From IMG/VR virus record IMGVR_UViG_3300017917_003339, positions 1 through 64,000 of that record: a DNA stretch of 64,000 nucleotides. The stretch is one strand, 5' to 3'. The stretch is from a virus. The translations under genes and the position numbers were made by a program. Position 1 is the first letter of the stretch. Each line of letters opens with the position of its first letter. Under the pieces are notes generated by a model that had not been told where the DNA came from, made no database searches, and was given only the letters and a program-made list of their open reading frames with translations. This document shows, one piece after another, positions 4,808 to 61,617 of this stretch.

Positions 4808-6024
4808 TACGAAAAGTTTTCATTTATGTCGAATGAACCACCAGAACCTGAACCTGAGAAGTCACCACCCCCAAATCCTTCTTTAAATGATTCATCGTTA
4901 TTATTTAACGCATCACCAACAATGGCGCCTAGTGGGTTTCCACCTACCATAGTCCCAATCATTGCTGAATCTGTAATGTAACCAATCATTGCTGATTCAA
5001 CAAAAGAATCATCGTTGTTTACTCTTACATTTGTTGTTTGAGTTTGACCAGTGTTTTCTCTATGTTTGAAATAACTTTTAACATAGGTATCGTCTTCGGC
5101 CACATACAAACCATTCTCATCTTTCTTGTTAATGGTCTTAGCAATCGGTGTGAACTCAGTAATGCGTTTTAAGTATTGTCTATTTTCAAGAGCACCATGC
5201 CAAATGTGGTACAAGTCACCTTCAACGTATCCCAATTTACCCTTGGTCTTTTTAAAGAATTTTTTAGACCATTTGTTTACAGCGTCAATGTCTTCGGTAA
5301 ACGATTTTGTAATACACTTATGACACAAGTGACCAGCAGCAGCGTGTGCTATGATGTGGTCAGCCCCACCAACAAGCGCTTTGTCATACAAAGGCATTTC
5401 GTCTAATAGACTTCTTTTAGCTCCCCATGCAAAACCAACGTGACCGTGTTTGTCATAGTTATGGTCATCAGAATAGTTTGTGTTTACGTAGTTAGCAGCA
5501 AAGCTTGTCCACATTCTTGGGTGGCGATGGCTTGTTGCTGTTAAATATCTGTAAGAGTCCAAATTAAAATCTGGTTCGAATTGGTCCTTTTCCAAGTGAA
5601 CGCAGTATTCAAACAGTTGAACGATACGATTTTTCTGTAATTGTTCAACGGCATCAACTAACCATCTTTTGTTTGTGAACAACACATCAGCATCAACCCA
5701 CATTACGTATTTAAACGAAGCTGGCAATTTTTTAATCAAACCATTTAACAATGTTTCTTTGTGCCAAAGAGTTGTCTGTGTATGTACAAGACTAAAGTTA
5801 GGGTTTGTATGGTCCAACTCTGGTTCATCATCACCAATAACACATTCAACAATTCTGTGATTCAAATGCTTGATTGATTCATAAAACTTGTTAAAAGCAA
5901 TCAAACGATAAGGATTTTTTTCTGGGTTGAAGTAACAAGCTACAATAACAGCCTCTGGATGGTTTACATATCCGTTATTGGTTACGCTAAGGAAAAGATT
6001 TTTGATTAATTGGAATATTCTCAT
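4807..6024 (-). CDS. GT-A type glycosyltransferase with Gly/Ser-rich tail
   Basis: 405 aa. The N-terminal 250 residues look like a GT-A glycosyltransferase: VIVACYFNPEKNPYRL, a DxD-type metal site in FKYVMWVDADVLF near residue 110, and an acceptor-side GHVGFAWGAKRS. After residue 330 the protein is low complexity, with two NPLGAIVG / SAMIG stretches and a Gly/Ser tail ending SFDINENFS. The AAA ATPase at 13065-14309 ends in a related SFDISE segment. A TAnnTTTG element lies 24 nt upstream and the stop is coupled to the next gene. Confidence 0.72.
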   Translation of the reverse strand: MRIFQLIKNLFLSVTNNGYVNHPEAVIVACYFNPEKNPYRLIAFNKFYESIKHLNHRIVECVIGDDEPELDHTNPNFSLVHTQTTLWHKETLLNGLIKKLPASFKYVMWVDADVLFTNKRWLVDAVEQLQKNRIVQLFEYCVHLEKDQFEPDFNLDSYRYLTATSHRHPRMWTSFAANYVNTNYSDDHNYDKHGHVGFAWGAKRSLLDEMPLYDKALVGGADHIIAHAAAGHLCHKCITKSFTEDIDAVNKWSKKFFKKTKGKLGYVEGDLYHIWHGALENRQYLKRITEFTPIAKTINKKDENGLYVAEDDTYVKSYFKHRENTGQTQTTNVRVNNDDSFVESAMIGYITDSAMIGTMVGGNPLGAIVGDALNNNDESFKEGFGGGDFSGSGSGGSFDINENFS

Positions 6025-9378: not shown

Positions 9379-9900
9379 TCAGTGCCTTGTTGAAGGTACA
9401 ACGTTTATGTTAAAATCGTTAAGTCTGCCTGACTCAACCTTATCATCACCCCACGCTTGGAAGATTGGAATGTGTTCTTCCCTATCATCCCATAATTCAA
9501 CCTCTTTGATTGATGGGTGTTGTTGAAGAATCTGGTCAAAGGTTTTCTTCTTTGCAGATTCTGTGCTACCACCTCTGTTAAAGTGATATTCGTGGAACTT
9601 AAGTCCATGTCTATCAAGGATGTCTTTAACCAAATCAGTTAATTTAACCATTCTACCAGTAACCATAACAACCATGGTGTTAGGGTCTTGAATTTCTTTT
9701 TTGTAATCTCTGATTACGCTTGGTATTGTTGGCATGTCAAACACTTGCATGTCAAGGCTCATGGGTTGTCCCCACCATCCAGCATGTGGCCAATCCTTGC
9801 CAGTTTTTTGTTTGTATGTTTTTTTACCGTCTTCTGGTAGCGGTGTGTCTACAAGCGTTCCGTCAAAGTCAAATACCGCTAATTTTGTAAATTTTTTCAT
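9379..9900 (-). CDS. HAD domain of Swiss Army Knife RNA-repair type
   Basis: 173 aa. HAD motif I is LAVFDFDGTLVDTPLP at residues 7-22, motif II is VVMVTGRMVKLTD near residue 77, and the last acidic motif is VELWDDREEHIPIF near residue 134. The insert DWPHAGWWGQPMSLD between them is characteristic of the HAD domains found in Swiss Army Knife RNA repair proteins. Such enzymes are proposed to remove phosphates from broken RNA ends. A second HAD of this kind is at 24271-24858. Substrate inferred from family only. Confidence 0.82.
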   Translation of the reverse strand: MKKFTKLAVFDFDGTLVDTPLPEDGKKTYKQKTGKDWPHAGWWGQPMSLDMQVFDMPTIPSVIRDYKKEIQDPNTMVVMVTGRMVKLTDLVKDILDRHGLKFHEYHFNRGGSTESAKKKTFDQILQQHPSIKEVELWDDREEHIPIFQAWGDDKVESGRLNDFNINVVPSTRH

Positions 9901-17653: not shown

Positions 17654-18469
17654 TTAATCAGTGACTATCTCACTTTTTGGTATCAAAGACATGAGGTATT
17701 CTCGGTCTTGAGTGAAAACTGGTGTGTTATAATCTGGTAACCATTTACTACGTTGTACTGGTTCACCGTTTTGTCCTTCAATTGTTATCACATGTCTTTT
17801 AATGACAGTGCCTCGTTTATACTTTGGCGCATAGTCATTCCAATTAACACCCTTCTCTTGGAAAAGCATTTCTTGTTTTTCGTCACTAGACTTGTTCATT
17901 GTAGCTGAGTGACCCAACAACGCGTGTGCCGCCATACTAACGCTGTTACGAGTACAGTCTTGCTGGCGCCAGATAAAATAGTTGGCAACCTCTCTGATGT
18001 CTGGAATAACAAACACCCTTGAGTCGAATACCGCATCAATTTCTGGAAAATCACCAGTTACAAGCTTTTCGATTACTTCTTCTTTGGTGTATTTAAAACT
18101 CAATAAAAGTCTAAGCATCATTTTGTTAAACGAAGCTGTTATCTTTGAAGCTGAAATACTACATAGCTTCTGTACTTTACCATCAAATGGTAACTCAGAA
18201 TCAATGTTGTCAATTGTTGAAAACACAAGGCTGATTTCATCTGATTGAGTATAAGCAAAGGCTGGTACCATGTACTTACATAACTCGATTGTAGCAGCAT
18301 CCATTACGTTTGACAACAAGTCATCAAACGGCTTATTGAATTTTTTGGTATATTTGCTAAAACCCTTACCATCAAGTCGTATGATAACATACGACCTGTT
18401 TGGTATCTTAAGGTTATAACATGACTCGTATTCTTTCATACGGTCTGATAATGATTGAGTTTTTCCCAT
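17654..18469 (-). CDS. tRNA(His) guanylyltransferase-like 3'-5' polymerase (Thg1-like)
   Basis: 271 aa, typical length. The catalytic palm motifs are visible: VIIRLDGKGFSKYTKKFNKP near residue 28 and FAYTQSDEISLVFS near residue 72, carrying the two metal-binding Asp sites. Later WRQQDCTRNSVSMAAHALLG matches the family. Thg1 adds G to the 5' end of tRNA-His; bacterial and archaeal Thg1-like proteins repair 5'-truncated tRNAs by templated 3'-5' addition. No tRNA-His was found in the window, so a repair or processing role for the phage tRNAs is the more attractive reading. Confidence 0.92.
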   Translation of the reverse strand: MGKTQSLSDRMKEYESCYNLKIPNRSYVIIRLDGKGFSKYTKKFNKPFDDLLSNVMDAATIELCKYMVPAFAYTQSDEISLVFSTIDNIDSELPFDGKVQKLCSISASKITASFNKMMLRLLLSFKYTKEEVIEKLVTGDFPEIDAVFDSRVFVIPDIREVANYFIWRQQDCTRNSVSMAAHALLGHSATMNKSSDEKQEMLFQEKGVNWNDYAPKYKRGTVIKRHVITIEGQNGEPVQRSKWLPDYNTPVFTQDREYLMSLIPKSEIVTD

Positions 18470-24111: not shown

Positions 24112-24290
24112 AATTTGTATAATTGTCTAAAATCAACTACTTTCATTGAATAATACGTATCTCCTTGTTTGAAGAATACGGTGTCGCCAATTTGTGTTGT
24201 GTTTTTAGGTTCCCATTTTTCCAACACACTTATTGGTAACACGGTTTCGCCTTCATTGGCTACACCAACTTTAATCGACTGTTCCGCCAT
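24108..24290 (-). CDS. unknown small beta-rich protein
   Basis: 60 aa (MAEQSIKVGVANEGETVLPI), probably a small beta barrel-like domain, overlapping the HAD genes on both sides. No family recognised. Confidence 0.6.
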   Translation of the reverse strand: MAEQSIKVGVANEGETVLPISVLEKWEPKNTTQIGDTVFFKQGDTYYSMKVVDFRQLYKL

Positions 24291-24858
24291 TAGTATCGTT
24301 TAAAAATTTTATTATTTTCTCTTTGACCCCAGATTGTTTAATACCCTCATAGAGTCTTGGTGTGTGAACAAAGTTCTTAAGTCCATAAACCAAATTACCG
24401 TCAGGTGTTATGTATTCACCAAGTTGCATATCATCTACCGCCACCCAAGATTCAACTTGGTTGTTTTTAAGCCAATGGTCAATCTCAAGAATTCTAGCAC
24501 GTTCATACCAACCCTTGTACATAAACATAGCACCAGCCAATTCATCAAAATCGCTAAGTTTAGGTGTTAGTGCTATGGGTTTTTTTATAATGCCTTGTGA
24601 TTCATAAAAAATACCTAATTCTTCTAAATTAGCCCATCTTTTCCAATCAGAAGAAACAACTATTTCAGCACCAGTTTTTTCAAGGATTTCATTAAGAACC
24701 TTTATGGCTTTTTTGTTGAAATTATCAAATCGTTCTATAACTGGAATAGACCCGTCGGCTATTGTTTGCCCAACACTTCTATTTTGTTTCTTGAATCGGC
24801 TACCAAATTCACTACCTAAACATATAACCCCATCGTGGTCTAAAAATATAACTTTCAT
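24271..24858 (-). CDS. HAD domain of Swiss Army Knife RNA-repair type
   Basis: 195 aa. Motif I is MKVIFLDHDGVICLGSEFG, motif II is AEIVVSSDWKRWANLEELG near residue 65, and the acidic site SWVAVDDMQLGEY lies near residue 131. The SSDWK form and the WxxVDD ending are typical of HADs attached to Swiss Army Knife RNA repair modules. With the HAD at 9379 and the Thg1-like protein it forms a possible RNA end-repair set. Confidence 0.8.
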   Translation of the reverse strand: MKVIFLDHDGVICLGSEFGSRFKKQNRSVGQTIADGSIPVIERFDNFNKKAIKVLNEILEKTGAEIVVSSDWKRWANLEELGIFYESQGIIKKPIALTPKLSDFDELAGAMFMYKGWYERARILEIDHWLKNNQVESWVAVDDMQLGEYITPDGNLVYGLKNFVHTPRLYEGIKQSGVKEKIIKFLNDTNGGTVD

Positions 24859-43754: not shown

Positions 43755-43760
43755 AAATTT

Positions 43761-43809
43761 CTAATTCTATGCTTGTCCTCACGCAACTCTATGAATTAGT
43801 AACAGTCTC
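43761..43809 (-). repeat. inter-tRNA spacer repeat, copy 1
   Basis: Plus-strand CTAATTCTATGC ... ATGAATTAGTAACAGTCTC between tRNA-Gln and tRNA-Gly. CTAATTC/GAATTAG can pair. Copies at 43898 and 59681. Confidence 0.7.
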
Positions 43810-43818
43810 ATCAACTGA

Positions 43819-43890: not shown

Positions 43891-43897
43891 AAATTTT

Positions 43898-43949
43898 TAA
43901 TTCTATGCAGACACTTACAAATGGGCCCCTATGAATTAATAACAGTCTC
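43898..43949 (-). repeat. inter-tRNA spacer repeat, copy 2
   Basis: Same ends as copy 1 (TAATTCTATGC ... ATGAATTAATAACAGTCTC) between tRNA-Gly and tRNA-Pro; the middle differs. Confidence 0.65.
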
Positions 43950-43956
43950 TTCTCGT

Positions 43957-58317: not shown

Positions 58318-58842
58318 CTAAACAGACATCCTTTTAACCATCTTTCTGTATATTCTATCTTCAAAATCTTTCATCAAAGAATCTGGGATTCTAATTCCTT
58401 TAGATTCGAATTCACCTATAATCTCACGTTTAAGAAATGTACCCTCAACAATTCCATCACCCCATTGGTCACACCAAAGTCCCCAGCTTTTCTTACCAAC
58501 AATCACAGCCTTGACTATGTTTGGGTGTCTGGTTACTATGGGTTTTCCACCAGAGTATTGTCCGTTATCGAATTTTCTAAATGTGTTTTTACCTTCGGAT
58601 TCATTGACATCAAATTCAACATTGACGATAGAACCGCAAAAGGTAAGAATACCTTTCCTATAAGAAGATAGAAAGAAATTGAAGATTTCATTGAAGTTGT
58701 CGGAATACTTTGATAACTTTCTATCAAGTCTGTTACCAGTTTCCTTTTTGCGTAATTCAATACGCTCTTGTTTTGTTAGGCTCCCAAGCGGTCGCCTCCT
58801 GATTGTGTTGTTTTCATATTCTTGTGTTTTTTGTTTAACCAA
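58318..58842 (-). CDS. unknown 174-aa protein
   Basis: 174 aa, basic N-terminus (RRRPLGSLTKQERIELRKKE), then an alpha/beta body with VKAVIVGKKSWGLWCDQWGD near residue 113 and a basic C-terminus. It overlaps the GluRS-like gene by 67 nt. No family recognised. Confidence 0.68.
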   Translation of the reverse strand: MVKQKTQEYENNTIRRRPLGSLTKQERIELRKKETGNRLDRKLSKYSDNFNEIFNFFLSSYRKGILTFCGSIVNVEFDVNESEGKNTFRKFDNGQYSGGKPIVTRHPNIVKAVIVGKKSWGLWCDQWGDGIVEGTFLKREIIGEFESKGIRIPDSLMKDFEDRIYRKMVKRMSV

Positions 58843-59579
58843 TTTAATTTATTCAAGTCAATACTTGAATTAGATTTTACAATATGACCATCTGGAAAAT
58901 GTTTTATCATATCAGACATACTCAATACTGGAAAATCTTTGTCAAAGTTTGCGTTTGGATGTGACCAACCAAATTTAAACAACCAATTCAACAACGCATC
59001 AACATCATAGTCATTATAATCATCCGTAGTACAGTTACCAGTTCTTTTAGATAACTTACTACCCTTATAAAACAATAAACCAGCATGTTGAACATTTGGA
59101 AATTGTTTTTGACCATATACGTTGCAAATCATATCCCACAACTTTTGTTGTTTTGGTAAATTTGTAATGTGGTCCACACCTCTGATTATGTCTGTAATGT
59201 CATAATCATAGTCATCTAATATCGAAGCAAAATTATAGGTTGGATAACCGTTATCTCTAAGGATAACCATATCGTAATCTCCCATGTTTACGTTTAACGT
59301 ACCATCGTCTTTTTTAAACCCTATAGCTGTTGCCACTTGTTTGTATCGGTCAAGTCTGCTACTTTGCTTAAATGTTACATCATAATTTAACCCAAAGTAA
59401 TTCATTTGTTGATATATGAAATCTACATCTGAATCATTGTTCCTAGACAAATCTGTGTCATCGATTCTAAGGATAAAATTACCATCATTTGATTTACTCA
59501 ATAAATAATTGAATAAAGCAGTACGTAATGTCCCTAAATGAAATTTGCCCGTTGGTGAAGGGGCAATTCTTGTTTTCAT
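58776..59579 (-). CDS. truncated glutamyl-tRNA synthetase-like protein
   Basis: 267 aa from the ATG at 59579; the longer frame starts inside tRNA-Ala. Class I signatures: RIAPSPTGKFHLGTLRTALF at residues 3-22 (HIGH variant HLGT) and FYKGSKLSKRTG near residue 190 (KMSKS variant). The order of blocks (NFILRIDDTDLSRN, DDYDYDITDIIRGVDHITNL, LLNWLFKFGWSHP) fits GluRS/GluQ-RS. The anticodon-binding domain of full GluRS is absent. It may charge tRNA-Glu or modify tRNA-Asp as GluQ-RS does; both tRNA types lie just upstream. Confidence 0.88.
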   Translation of the reverse strand: MKTRIAPSPTGKFHLGTLRTALFNYLLSKSNDGNFILRIDDTDLSRNNDSDVDFIYQQMNYFGLNYDVTFKQSSRLDRYKQVATAIGFKKDDGTLNVNMGDYDMVILRDNGYPTYNFASILDDYDYDITDIIRGVDHITNLPKQQKLWDMICNVYGQKQFPNVQHAGLLFYKGSKLSKRTGNCTTDDYNDYDVDALLNWLFKFGWSHPNANFDKDFPVLSMSDMIKHFPDGHIVKSNSSIDLNKLNWLNKKHKNMKTTQSGGDRLGA

Positions 59580-59601
59580 AATACTATTTTTTATATTTTG
59601 T

Positions 59602-59673
59602 GGAGCTGACGGGAGTTGAACCCGCATCCTCTACCTTGCAAAGGTAGCGCTCAGCCAGTTGAGCTACAGCCCC
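59602..59673 (-). tRNA. tRNA-Ala(TGC)
   Basis: 72 nt, acceptor GGGGCTG/CAGCTCC, stem CTACC/GGTAG, loop TTTGCAA. Confidence 0.94.
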
Positions 59674-59680
59674 AAAATTT

Positions 59681-59728
59681 CTAATTCTACGCTTACAATA
59701 TGTAGTTCTATGAATTAGTAACAGTCTC
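59681..59728 (-). repeat. inter-tRNA spacer repeat, copy 3
   Basis: CTAATTCTACGC ... ATGAATTAGTAACAGTCTC on the plus strand between tRNA-Ala and the expanded tRNA-Asp, matching 43761 and 43898. Confidence 0.7.
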
Positions 59729-59736
59729 ATCTGTGC

Positions 59737-59856
59737 GGACGCAGTGGGACTCGAACCCACAGCTTTTTCGTGACAGGAAAATTAACTAATGCTGCTGGAG
59801 ATAACCTTGTCAGGTTATGACTTGTTTTTAACATGTTACCCTTACACCATACGTCC
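59737..59856 (-). tRNA. tRNA-Asp(GTC) with 50-nt insertion
   Basis: 120 nt. Acceptor GGACGTA/TGCGTCC, D arm GTGT-AAGGGTA-ACAT, anticodon arm TTTTC-CTGTCAC-GAAAA and T arm GTGGG-TTCGAGT-CCCAC are all complete. Exactly 50 extra nt lie between the D arm and the anticodon stem, holding a hairpin ATAACCT-GACA-AGGTTAT. Removing them restores a normal tRNA. Confidence 0.75.
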
Positions 59857-60524: not shown

Positions 60525-61163
60525 TTATTTTCTCCCTTTTAACCAACCTTCGTTTAAATAAGTTTCAAGGTCTTCTTTTTTAATTTTTTTGTTAGTACCA
60601 TCCTTGGTTATCCAACATGTACCATATTGACTGTTTGTTTCACCAGTCCCAGTACCTTTTCTTTTTTCTGATATTAATTGTTTAGTTTCTTCCGAATGAC
60701 ATTTACCTTCAAAAGTATTATAATTAATTTTACCTAATTTATGTGCTTTTTTTAATGTTTCAGATGATATTTCTGTATGTTTTTTAAAAAACTCTTCATC
60801 AATTTTTAATTTGTCAGAAAACGCTTTTCCACCAGCCTTAATACATTTCTCCATATGTTCTTTATTAGCAAAACCACCTTGACCACCTTCTTTTAAATTC
60901 ATACATAAACCATCAGATATCAACTCTTTTGTTATAATTTCAATCTCTCTAAGAACTAATTTTTCTCTTGTTGGTAAAAATTCTAATATTTCTTTTGTAT
61001 GGTTTTCAACACCATATTTCCTAATACTATATCTTAATATCTTACCACTTCCCATGTAACCGTCATCTAATTTCGTAGTTGAATGCATTCCAATATACCA
61101 TCTTCCTGTTACATTACATGTTGTTTTATATATGTAATGTATATTTGCTTTTTTTCTTGCCAT
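60525..61163 (-). CDS. GIY-YIG homing endonuclease
   Basis: 212 aa. The GIY-YIG core is HYIYKTTCNVTGRWYIGMHS at residues 9-28 with KYGVENHTKEILEFLPTREK and LVLREIEIITKELISDGLCM following; the catalytic Arg and Glu regions are in place. C-terminal DNA-binding elements follow (SEETKQLISEKRKGTG and a Lys-rich tail). It lies between two tRNA-Glu genes. A 14-bp inverted repeat with a second-class motif in its loop adjoins the start codon. Confidence 0.92.
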   Translation of the reverse strand: MARKKANIHYIYKTTCNVTGRWYIGMHSTTKLDDGYMGSGKILRYSIRKYGVENHTKEILEFLPTREKLVLREIEIITKELISDGLCMNLKEGGQGGFANKEHMEKCIKAGGKAFSDKLKIDEEFFKKHTEISSETLKKAHKLGKINYNTFEGKCHSEETKQLISEKRKGTGTGETNSQYGTCWITKDGTNKKIKKEDLETYLNEGWLKGRK

Positions 61164-61299: not shown

Positions 61300-61357
61300 A
61301 TGTTTATCGTTTCGGTTACCCCCACGCAGTGCACTTACGCAGGGACCTACTCCTTGT

Positions 61358-61520
61358 AGGAATGAGTGGATTCGAACCACTGACCTTCTCCCTTATGATG
61401 GGAGTCGTTCTGAATGTGTTTTTTCAACCAACTTAATGGTAATTCATTAAGCACACACCCCGATTGTTGTTATTTACCATCTCCTTAAGGAGCCAATCAG
61501 ACCGCTGAACGTACATTCCT
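61358..61520 (-). tRNA. tRNA-Met(CAT) with about 86-nt D-loop insertion
   Basis: 163 nt. Acceptor AGGAATG/CATTCCT, D stem CGTTC/GAACG, anticodon arm CTCCC-ATCATAA-GGGAG and T arm AGTGG-TTCGAAT-CCACT are complete. The D loop holds about 86 extra nt with hairpins CTCC-TTAA-GGAG and ATGGTAA/TTACCAT. Removal yields a 77-nt tRNA. CAT could be Met or lysidine-modified Ile. Confidence 0.75.
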
Positions 61521-61523
61521 AGT

Positions 61524-61595
61524 GGTACCTCCCAGATTCGAACTGGGGACACCTGCATCTTCAGTGCAGTGCTCTACCAACTGAGCTAAGGTACC
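61524..61595 (-). tRNA. tRNA-Phe(GAA), second copy
   Basis: 72 nt, acceptor GGTACCT/AGGTACC, stem CTGCA/TGCAG, loop CTGAAGA. Confidence 0.94.
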
Positions 61596-61609: not shown

Positions 61610-61617
61610 CAAAGATA
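61610..61617 (-). promoter_or_regulatory. TAnnTTTG promoter element of the tRNA array
   Basis: Minus strand TATCTTTG, 14 nt upstream of tRNA-Phe. Confidence 0.6.

What the first reader, a model, noticed from the sequence alone, without database searches (positions are those of the whole stretch)
61358..61520. tRNA-Met(CAT) with about 86 nt inserted in the D loop
Acceptor, D stem, anticodon arm and T arm are complete, but the D loop carries a structured 86-nt insertion. It is the only CAT tRNA seen here, so its maturation would matter.
Basis: partly seen in the sequence, partly recalled or inferred. Interest (0 to 1): 0.72.

Follow-up and report, generated by a model that had tools for sequence, protein, structure and literature searches.

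The report
Phage tRNA with large D-loop insert
A very large bacterial virus carries an otherwise perfect tRNA gene reading the AUG codon whose D loop holds an extra 88-nucleotide, two-hairpin piece, one of several tRNA genes with odd insertions in such viruses; if the piece is cut out, these viruses would have a tRNA-splicing process that nobody has described.

Summary
Window 61357-61520 (minus strand) is a complete CAU-anticodon tRNA gene (acceptor 7/7, anticodon stem 5/5, T stem 5/5, D stem 4-5 bp) with a 98-100 nt D loop. The extra 88 nt (61500-61413) lie after G18-G19 and fold as two abutting hairpin domains. Chance is about 0.005 per shuffled window. It is not the phage's only CAT tRNA: a normal one lies at 83073-83147 and a compressed, conserved one at 82411-82480 of the same 92.5-kb record.

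It is no known intron: no Rfam match, too short for group I or II, no bulge-helix-bulge, no splicing endonuclease. It belongs to a wider pattern. The same phage has a tRNA-Asp whose anticodon stem is interrupted by about 50 nt, and other huge phages carry insertions in tRNA helices, with insert families shared within one phage. The phage encodes an RNA kinase-phosphodiesterase and a T4-type RNA ligase, enough to rejoin cut tRNA halves.

I favour an intron-like insert removed by an unidentified cut and rejoined by these enzymes (0.42); a retained extension or a decaying gene remain open. A close relative lacks this tRNA at the same place, so conservation of this insert is unproven. Lak phages set a precedent (PMC6784885).

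The parts
61357..61520 (-). tRNA gene, anticodon CAT, with D-loop insertion (61357 is the discriminator A; no encoded CCA)
   Evidence: descriptor; fold
61501..61520 (-). 5' exon part: acceptor 5' strand, U8-A9, D stem 5' strand, D loop up to G18-G19-U20 (AGCGGT)
61413..61500 (-). 88-nt insertion in the D loop between position 20 and A21 (boundaries inferred from canonical D-loop length; shift of a nucleotide or two possible)
61460..61500 (-). insert domain 1: hairpin closed by CUGAUUG/CAAUCGG with inner CUCC-UUAA-GGAG
   Evidence: whole insert -21.6 kcal/mol vs -14.2 +/- 2.7 in 500 shuffles, 1% as low
61413..61459 (-). insert domain 2: GGUGUGU/ACACAUU outer helix, CUUAAUG-AAUUAC-CAUUAAG inner hairpin, A-rich 3' side
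61358..61412 (-). 3' exon part: D stem 3' strand, anticodon arm (61388-61404), T arm, acceptor 3' strand
61522..61595 (-). tRNA-Phe directly upstream, two bases away; presumably cotranscribed
61610..61617 (-). TATCTTTG, a Bacteroidota-type promoter -7 element (TAnnTTTG) about 15 nt before the tRNA-Phe
   Evidence: read; consensus from own knowledge
59736..59856 (-). second insertion-bearing tRNA of the same array: tRNA-Asp(GTC) whose anticodon-stem 5' side is interrupted by about 50 nt (about 59782-59831)
   Evidence: ARAGORN 119.2 after removal, not found before
9379..9900 (-). HAD_SAK_1 protein (HAD domain of Swiss Army Knife RNA repair proteins)
   Evidence: Pfam PF10307, E 6.8e-14
24271..24858 (-). 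HAD_SAK_2 protein (same kind)
   Evidence: Pfam PF18143, E 6.9e-20
17654..18469 (-). Thg1-family tRNA 3'-5' polymerase / guanylyltransferase
   Evidence: Pfam PF04446, E 1.8e-30

Best explanation
The gene makes a CAU tRNA precursor in which an 88-nt two-hairpin intervening sequence interrupts the D loop after G18-G19. Shown: the intact exons, the position, the fold, the lack of known intron motifs, and a phage-encoded RNA end-healing and sealing set. Inferred: RNase P and 3' processing release the precursor, an unidentified nuclease (host or phage) cuts at the base of the hairpin module, the kinase-phosphodiesterase heals the ends, and the T4-RNA-ligase-1-type ligase joins the halves into a canonical 76-nt tRNA. 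It would be one case of a wider intron-like phenomenon in tRNA genes of huge phages.
For: Exons fully intact, with the removed form scoring as a normal tRNA. Insert fold better than 99% of 500 shuffles, its two domains spanning the insert end to end. The same array has a tRNA-Asp with an insertion that breaks the anticodon stem, so unless removed that tRNA is dead. In LR756501 a tRNA-Arg and a tRNA(CAT) carry 45- and 68-nt inserts at the same place (29/30), alike in sequence, whose removal restores ACGGC/GCCGT. LR756500 has four tRNAs, and LR756511 at least three, with family-specific inserts at different positions. The phage encodes an RNA ligase like T4 Rnl1 (record 77054-78178) and a kinase plus tRNA_lig_CPD protein (79365-80303), the latter 80% identical in relative G007. 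Precedent: tRNA introns in Lak phages (PMC6784885).
Against: The insert sits in a loop and breaks no helix, so removal is not required by the sequence. It shares no clear motif with the Asp insert or with the other phages' insert families. In the close relative G007 the Phe-Glu junction has no CAT tRNA at all, so there is no evidence that this insert is conserved. No cutting enzyme is identified; EndA is absent. Ligase and kinase-phosphodiesterase are equally explained by repair of tRNAs cut by host defences. I chose the removal boundaries to restore a normal D loop, so the good score after removal is partly built in.
Confidence: 0.42

Rival explanations
1. Retained extension: the mature RNA keeps the two-hairpin D-loop module, either as a working tRNA with an expansion or as a tRNA-like decoy or regulatory RNA.
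For: The module is inserted in the naturally variable part of the D loop (20/20a), folds on its own, and ends at the loop. Relatives L014 and L015 have two neighbouring tRNAs with D-loop hairpin inserts at the same place (42 and 17 nt, nearly identical in the two contigs). G000 and G007 share a Ser-like tRNA with a 20-nt D loop whose acceptor and T stems differ by compensating changes.
Against: In the predicted fold G18 is paired (unpaired probability 0.065) and the D stem forms with only 0.44 probability when unconstrained, which would disturb the elbow. No known bacterial tRNA has such a D loop, to my knowledge; a review of non-canonical tRNAs gave none in the passages read.
Confidence: 0.3
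2. Gene in decay or transit: a recently gained tRNA hit by an insertion and no longer used; the normal CAT tRNA at 83 kb does the work.
For: Absent from the same junction in G007. Two other CAT tRNA genes in the record. The array is full of odd second copies and homing endonuclease genes.
Against: Every exon stem is perfectly paired and the conserved bases are in place, unlike a decaying gene; the insert folds better than 99% of shuffles.
Confidence: 0.23
3. Sequence or assembly artefact.
For: Single metagenome-derived record; no second copy found.
Against: Insert is exactly within the D loop, has its own fold, and similar gene anatomy recurs in independent assemblies.
Confidence: 0.05

Closest known systems
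tRNA introns of Lak megaphages (Devoto et al. 2019, PMC6784885)
   Same: Huge phage, Bacteroidota-type host, extra sequence in otherwise intact tRNA genes, no known intron class, mechanism unknown
   Different: The Lak tRNA-Thr case (L069, gene ending near 2340) has its insert in the anticodon loop and contains a nested tRNA; here the insert is in the D loop and holds no tRNA
Archaeal bulge-helix-bulge tRNA introns at non-canonical positions
   Same: Small introns anywhere in the tRNA body, including outside the anticodon loop
   Different: No BHB fold here and no splicing endonuclease gene in the phage record
Group I introns in bacterial and phage tRNA genes; group II intron in the D stem of chloroplast trnG
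   Same: Intervening sequence in a tRNA gene
   Different: 88 nt is far below either ribozyme core; no Rfam match
Fungal-type tRNA ligase pathway (kinase, cyclic phosphodiesterase, ligase) and T4 Pnkp/Rnl1 tRNA repair
   Same: The phage has a kinase-phosphodiesterase protein and a separate T4 Rnl1-like ligase
   Different: Whether they join these exons or repair defence-cut tRNAs is unknown
tmRNA (tRNA domain with a large internal insertion)
   Same: tRNA ends with a large internal RNA
   Different: Here the full cloverleaf with anticodon arm is kept and there is no tag reading frame match

Membership tests
Canonical elongator-type tRNA(CAT) | 7-5-5 stems, 7-nt anticodon loop with U33, TTCRA T loop, G18G19 | tested here: met
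   (after removing the insert)
Canonical elongator-type tRNA(CAT) | D loop of 7-11 nt | tested here: not met
   98-100 nt
Group I or II intron | conserved ribozyme core | tested here: not met
   no Rfam hit in 61300-61530 at E up to 10 other than a weak T-arm match; 88 nt
BHB intron spliced by EndA | bulge-helix-bulge at the junctions | tested here: not met
   none with an excised length of 60-110 nt
BHB intron spliced by EndA | splicing endonuclease PF01974 | tested here: not met
   0 of 7 phage records, rings in 4 archaeal controls; record is partial and a host enzyme is not excluded
Huge-phage tRNA introns (Lak type) | excision shown by alleles with and without the insert | tested here: inconclusive
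   relative G007 lacks the whole gene, not only the insert
Huge-phage tRNA introns (Lak type) | insert in the anticodon loop | tested here: not met
   insert is in the D loop
Insert families of LR756500, LR756501, LR756511 | family core (ATTACAG-type, YACAGCAAMAC, or ACTTGG...TACAAAC) | tested here: not met
   no core match at 61413-61500; strict LR756511-type pattern absent from the whole record
Heal-and-seal RNA repair/splicing set | kinase, cyclic phosphodiesterase and ligase | tested here: met
   PF13671 E 5.6e-10; PF08302 E 2.5e-4, just under its cut-off; PF09511 E 3.5e-14
Any spliced tRNA | joined exons in RNA | not testable with these tools
   no transcript data

The most novel reading that the evidence does not exclude
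Huge phages carry small, previously unclassified introns at many positions of their tRNA genes (D loop, D stem, 9/10, 26/27, anticodon stem), in families specific to each phage lineage, and mature them with phage RNA healing and sealing enzymes; the CAT tRNA here is a D-loop case.
Probability: 0.33. Interest if true: 0.86.

Novelty: new variant of a known kind. Interest (0 to 1): 0.6.

Why it matters
Bacterial tRNA introns are known essentially only as self-splicing group I (and rare group II) introns. Short inserts that break tRNA helices in several huge phages, in records that also encode RNA ligases, would imply a tRNA maturation route not described for bacteria or their viruses. It would make the unexplained tRNA introns of Lak phages testable: named genes, named junctions and a simple readout, the presence of spliced 76-nt tRNA.

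Tried and rejected
Exact-pattern scans of IMG/VR with exon or insert sequence found nothing. A DNA search for the whole gene in two related records gave only 14-19 nt chance or T-arm matches. A pattern for the LR756501-type insert gave 15 matches, none in a tRNA. A pattern for the LR756511-type insert gave 93 matches; 8 (in 7 contigs) formed the hairpin and only L158 (two copies) lay in tRNAs. Group I, group II, BHB and tmRNA readings were rejected as described. A nested tRNA inside the insert was considered, because LR756504 (L075, T arm near 5193) and Lak have such cases; the insert has no T-arm sequence. My first intron-anywhere scoring script was faulty (variable loop of 6 excluded, so it missed this gene) and is not used. 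Many descriptor hits of class J are chimeras between neighbouring tRNAs and were discarded.

Full report
What is there. The window is part of a 92,494-bp virus record with about 50 tRNA genes, nearly all on the minus strand. It encodes SmpB, RNase R, IF3, a Thg1-like enzyme and a GluRS-like protein, so it is a phage. Its nearest relatives are huge phages: LR756500 (462 kb) shares a 604-aa protein at 70% identity, LR745206 (635 kb) the GluRS-like protein at 64%, and the IMG/VR contig G007 (362 kb) a 775-aa protein at 82%. These LR records are, from my own knowledge, of the set of Al-Shayeb et al. (PMC7162821). That paper reports up to 67 tRNAs per genome, and a word search of it gave no mention of introns.

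The gene. On the minus strand 61520-61357 reads AGGAATG TA C GTTC AGCGGT [88 nt] CA GAAC G A CTCCC ATCATAA GGGAG AAGGTC AGTGG TTCGAAT CCACT CATTCCT A. All stems are Watson-Crick paired. In 200 dinucleotide shuffles the descriptor gave 0.045 long-D-loop hits per window and 0.005 with full acceptor and T stem. ARAGORN does not find the gene; with the 88 nt removed it scores 112.7 as a normal CAT tRNA. I chose the boundaries to leave a normal D loop, so that score is not independent proof. The insert folds into two abutting hairpin domains (41 and 47 nt) at -21.6 kcal/mol against -14.2 +/- 2.7 for 500 shuffles, 1% of which fold as well. Left in place, it pairs G18 and lowers D-stem formation to 0.44. 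The gene follows tRNA-Phe after two bases, behind a Bacteroidota-type promoter.

Not the only CAT tRNA. A normal one lies at 83073-83147. A 70-nt one with a short D arm lies at 82480-82411; its counterpart in G007 differs in acceptor (CCGCA/TGCGG to CCGAG/CTCGG) and T stem (TCGGG/CCCGA to ATGGG/CCCAT) by changes that keep the pairs.

A wider pattern. I listed T arms not covered by an ARAGORN tRNA and looked for a matching acceptor strand upstream. In the same phage, 59856-59736 is a tRNA-Asp(GTC) whose anticodon stem 5' side is broken by about 50 nt; removal gives ARAGORN 119.2. In LR756501 a tRNA-Arg(TCT) and a tRNA(CAT) have 45- and 68-nt inserts at the same site, ACG^GC, ending in CACAGCAAAACAAAAC and TACAGCAACACAAACCAA; removal gives 124.4 and 119.9. 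In LR756500 four tRNAs have 62-69 nt inserts, at position 9/10 or in the D loop, with a shared 8-bp helix (ATAACTTT/AAAGTTAT, with changes on both sides) and ATTACAG. In LR756511 three tRNAs have inserts with ACTTGG-hairpin-CYCC...TACAAAC. In all ten cases scored, removal gave ARAGORN 100-124, and without it the gene was missed or, once, scored 89. The shuffle control for the long-D-loop class gave 1 hit in 1.44 Mb. D-loop inserts at the same place as here (after GG) occur in L014 and L015. Rfam shows no known intron or ribozyme in the LR756500, LR756501 or LR756511 stretches searched.

Mechanism. EndA is absent from seven phage records tested, while archaeal controls ring, and there is no BHB in this gene. 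RtcB is present only in LR756501, twice. A T4-type RNA ligase is in this phage (77054-78178; best solved relative T4 RNA ligase 1, E 1.6e-9) and in most of the others. A 312-aa protein at 79365-80303 joins a P-loop kinase domain (AAA_33, E 5.6e-10) to a weak fungal tRNA-ligase phosphodiesterase match (E 2.5e-4, just below the Pfam cut-off), and G007 has it at 80% identity. Two HAD-SAK proteins and Thg1 complete an RNA repair set. Such a set can rejoin tRNA halves whatever cut them: an intron-excising nuclease or a host defence nuclease. The sequence cannot tell these apart.

Judgement. Splicing is my first choice at 0.42, because helix-breaking inserts recur in this phage and its relatives and because sealing enzymes are present. 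For this particular gene the evidence is weaker than for the Asp and the LR756501 genes: the insert is in a loop, shares no motif with the others, and the gene is missing from the same junction of G007. Retention (0.30) and decay (0.23) are live.

Comparison. Lak phages were reported with 'enigmatic' tRNA introns (PMC6784885). I found no paper describing D-loop or other body introns in phage tRNAs in the searches made; the library lacks many journals.

Noticed in passing
LR756511.1 about 288000-291450, minus strand (L062:7990-11440); L158:3921-4355: A compact RNA element (ACTTGG-hairpin-YCCC...A(G)C(A/T)TACAAAC), nine strong copies of its tail in 3.5 kb, inside tRNAs, and also in what looks like permuted form flanking whole tRNAs (3' half before, 5' half after). 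Not in Rfam; also in a second contig. Looks like an unknown tRNA-linked intron or processing element.
   Followed up: partly
L016:107-206, L024:3213-3292, L037:2981-3059: tRNA-like genes in which the anticodon arm seems to come before a D-loop-like GG sequence, i.e. possibly arm-permuted tRNAs.
   Followed up: no
record 83797-83890 (L010), G007 counterpart in L087 near 3039: Ser-like tRNA with a 20-nt D loop, conserved between two phages with compensating stem changes.
   Followed up: partly
L075, T arm near 5193 (LR756504): D-loop insertion after GG that appears to contain a nested tRNA with T loop TTCGTTC.
   Followed up: no
window 53120-53246: Y-RNA-like (YrlA) match below the gathering score next to tRNA-like fragments.
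   Followed up: no
window 58776-59627: GluRS-like protein of 283 aa with only the catalytic domain, while relatives L014 and L015 carry Glu-bodied tRNAs with odd anticodons.
   Followed up: no
window 43755-43816, 43891-43954, 59674-59735: A repeated spacer between neighbouring tRNAs: GAGACTGTTAYTAATTCATAG ... ATAGAATTARAAATTT, with the potential to pair CTAATTC/GAATTAG.
   Followed up: no
window 60525-61163: GIY-YIG/NUMOD3 homing endonuclease gene within the tRNA array; a second one from about 84621 to 83974 between the two His tRNAs.
   Followed up: no
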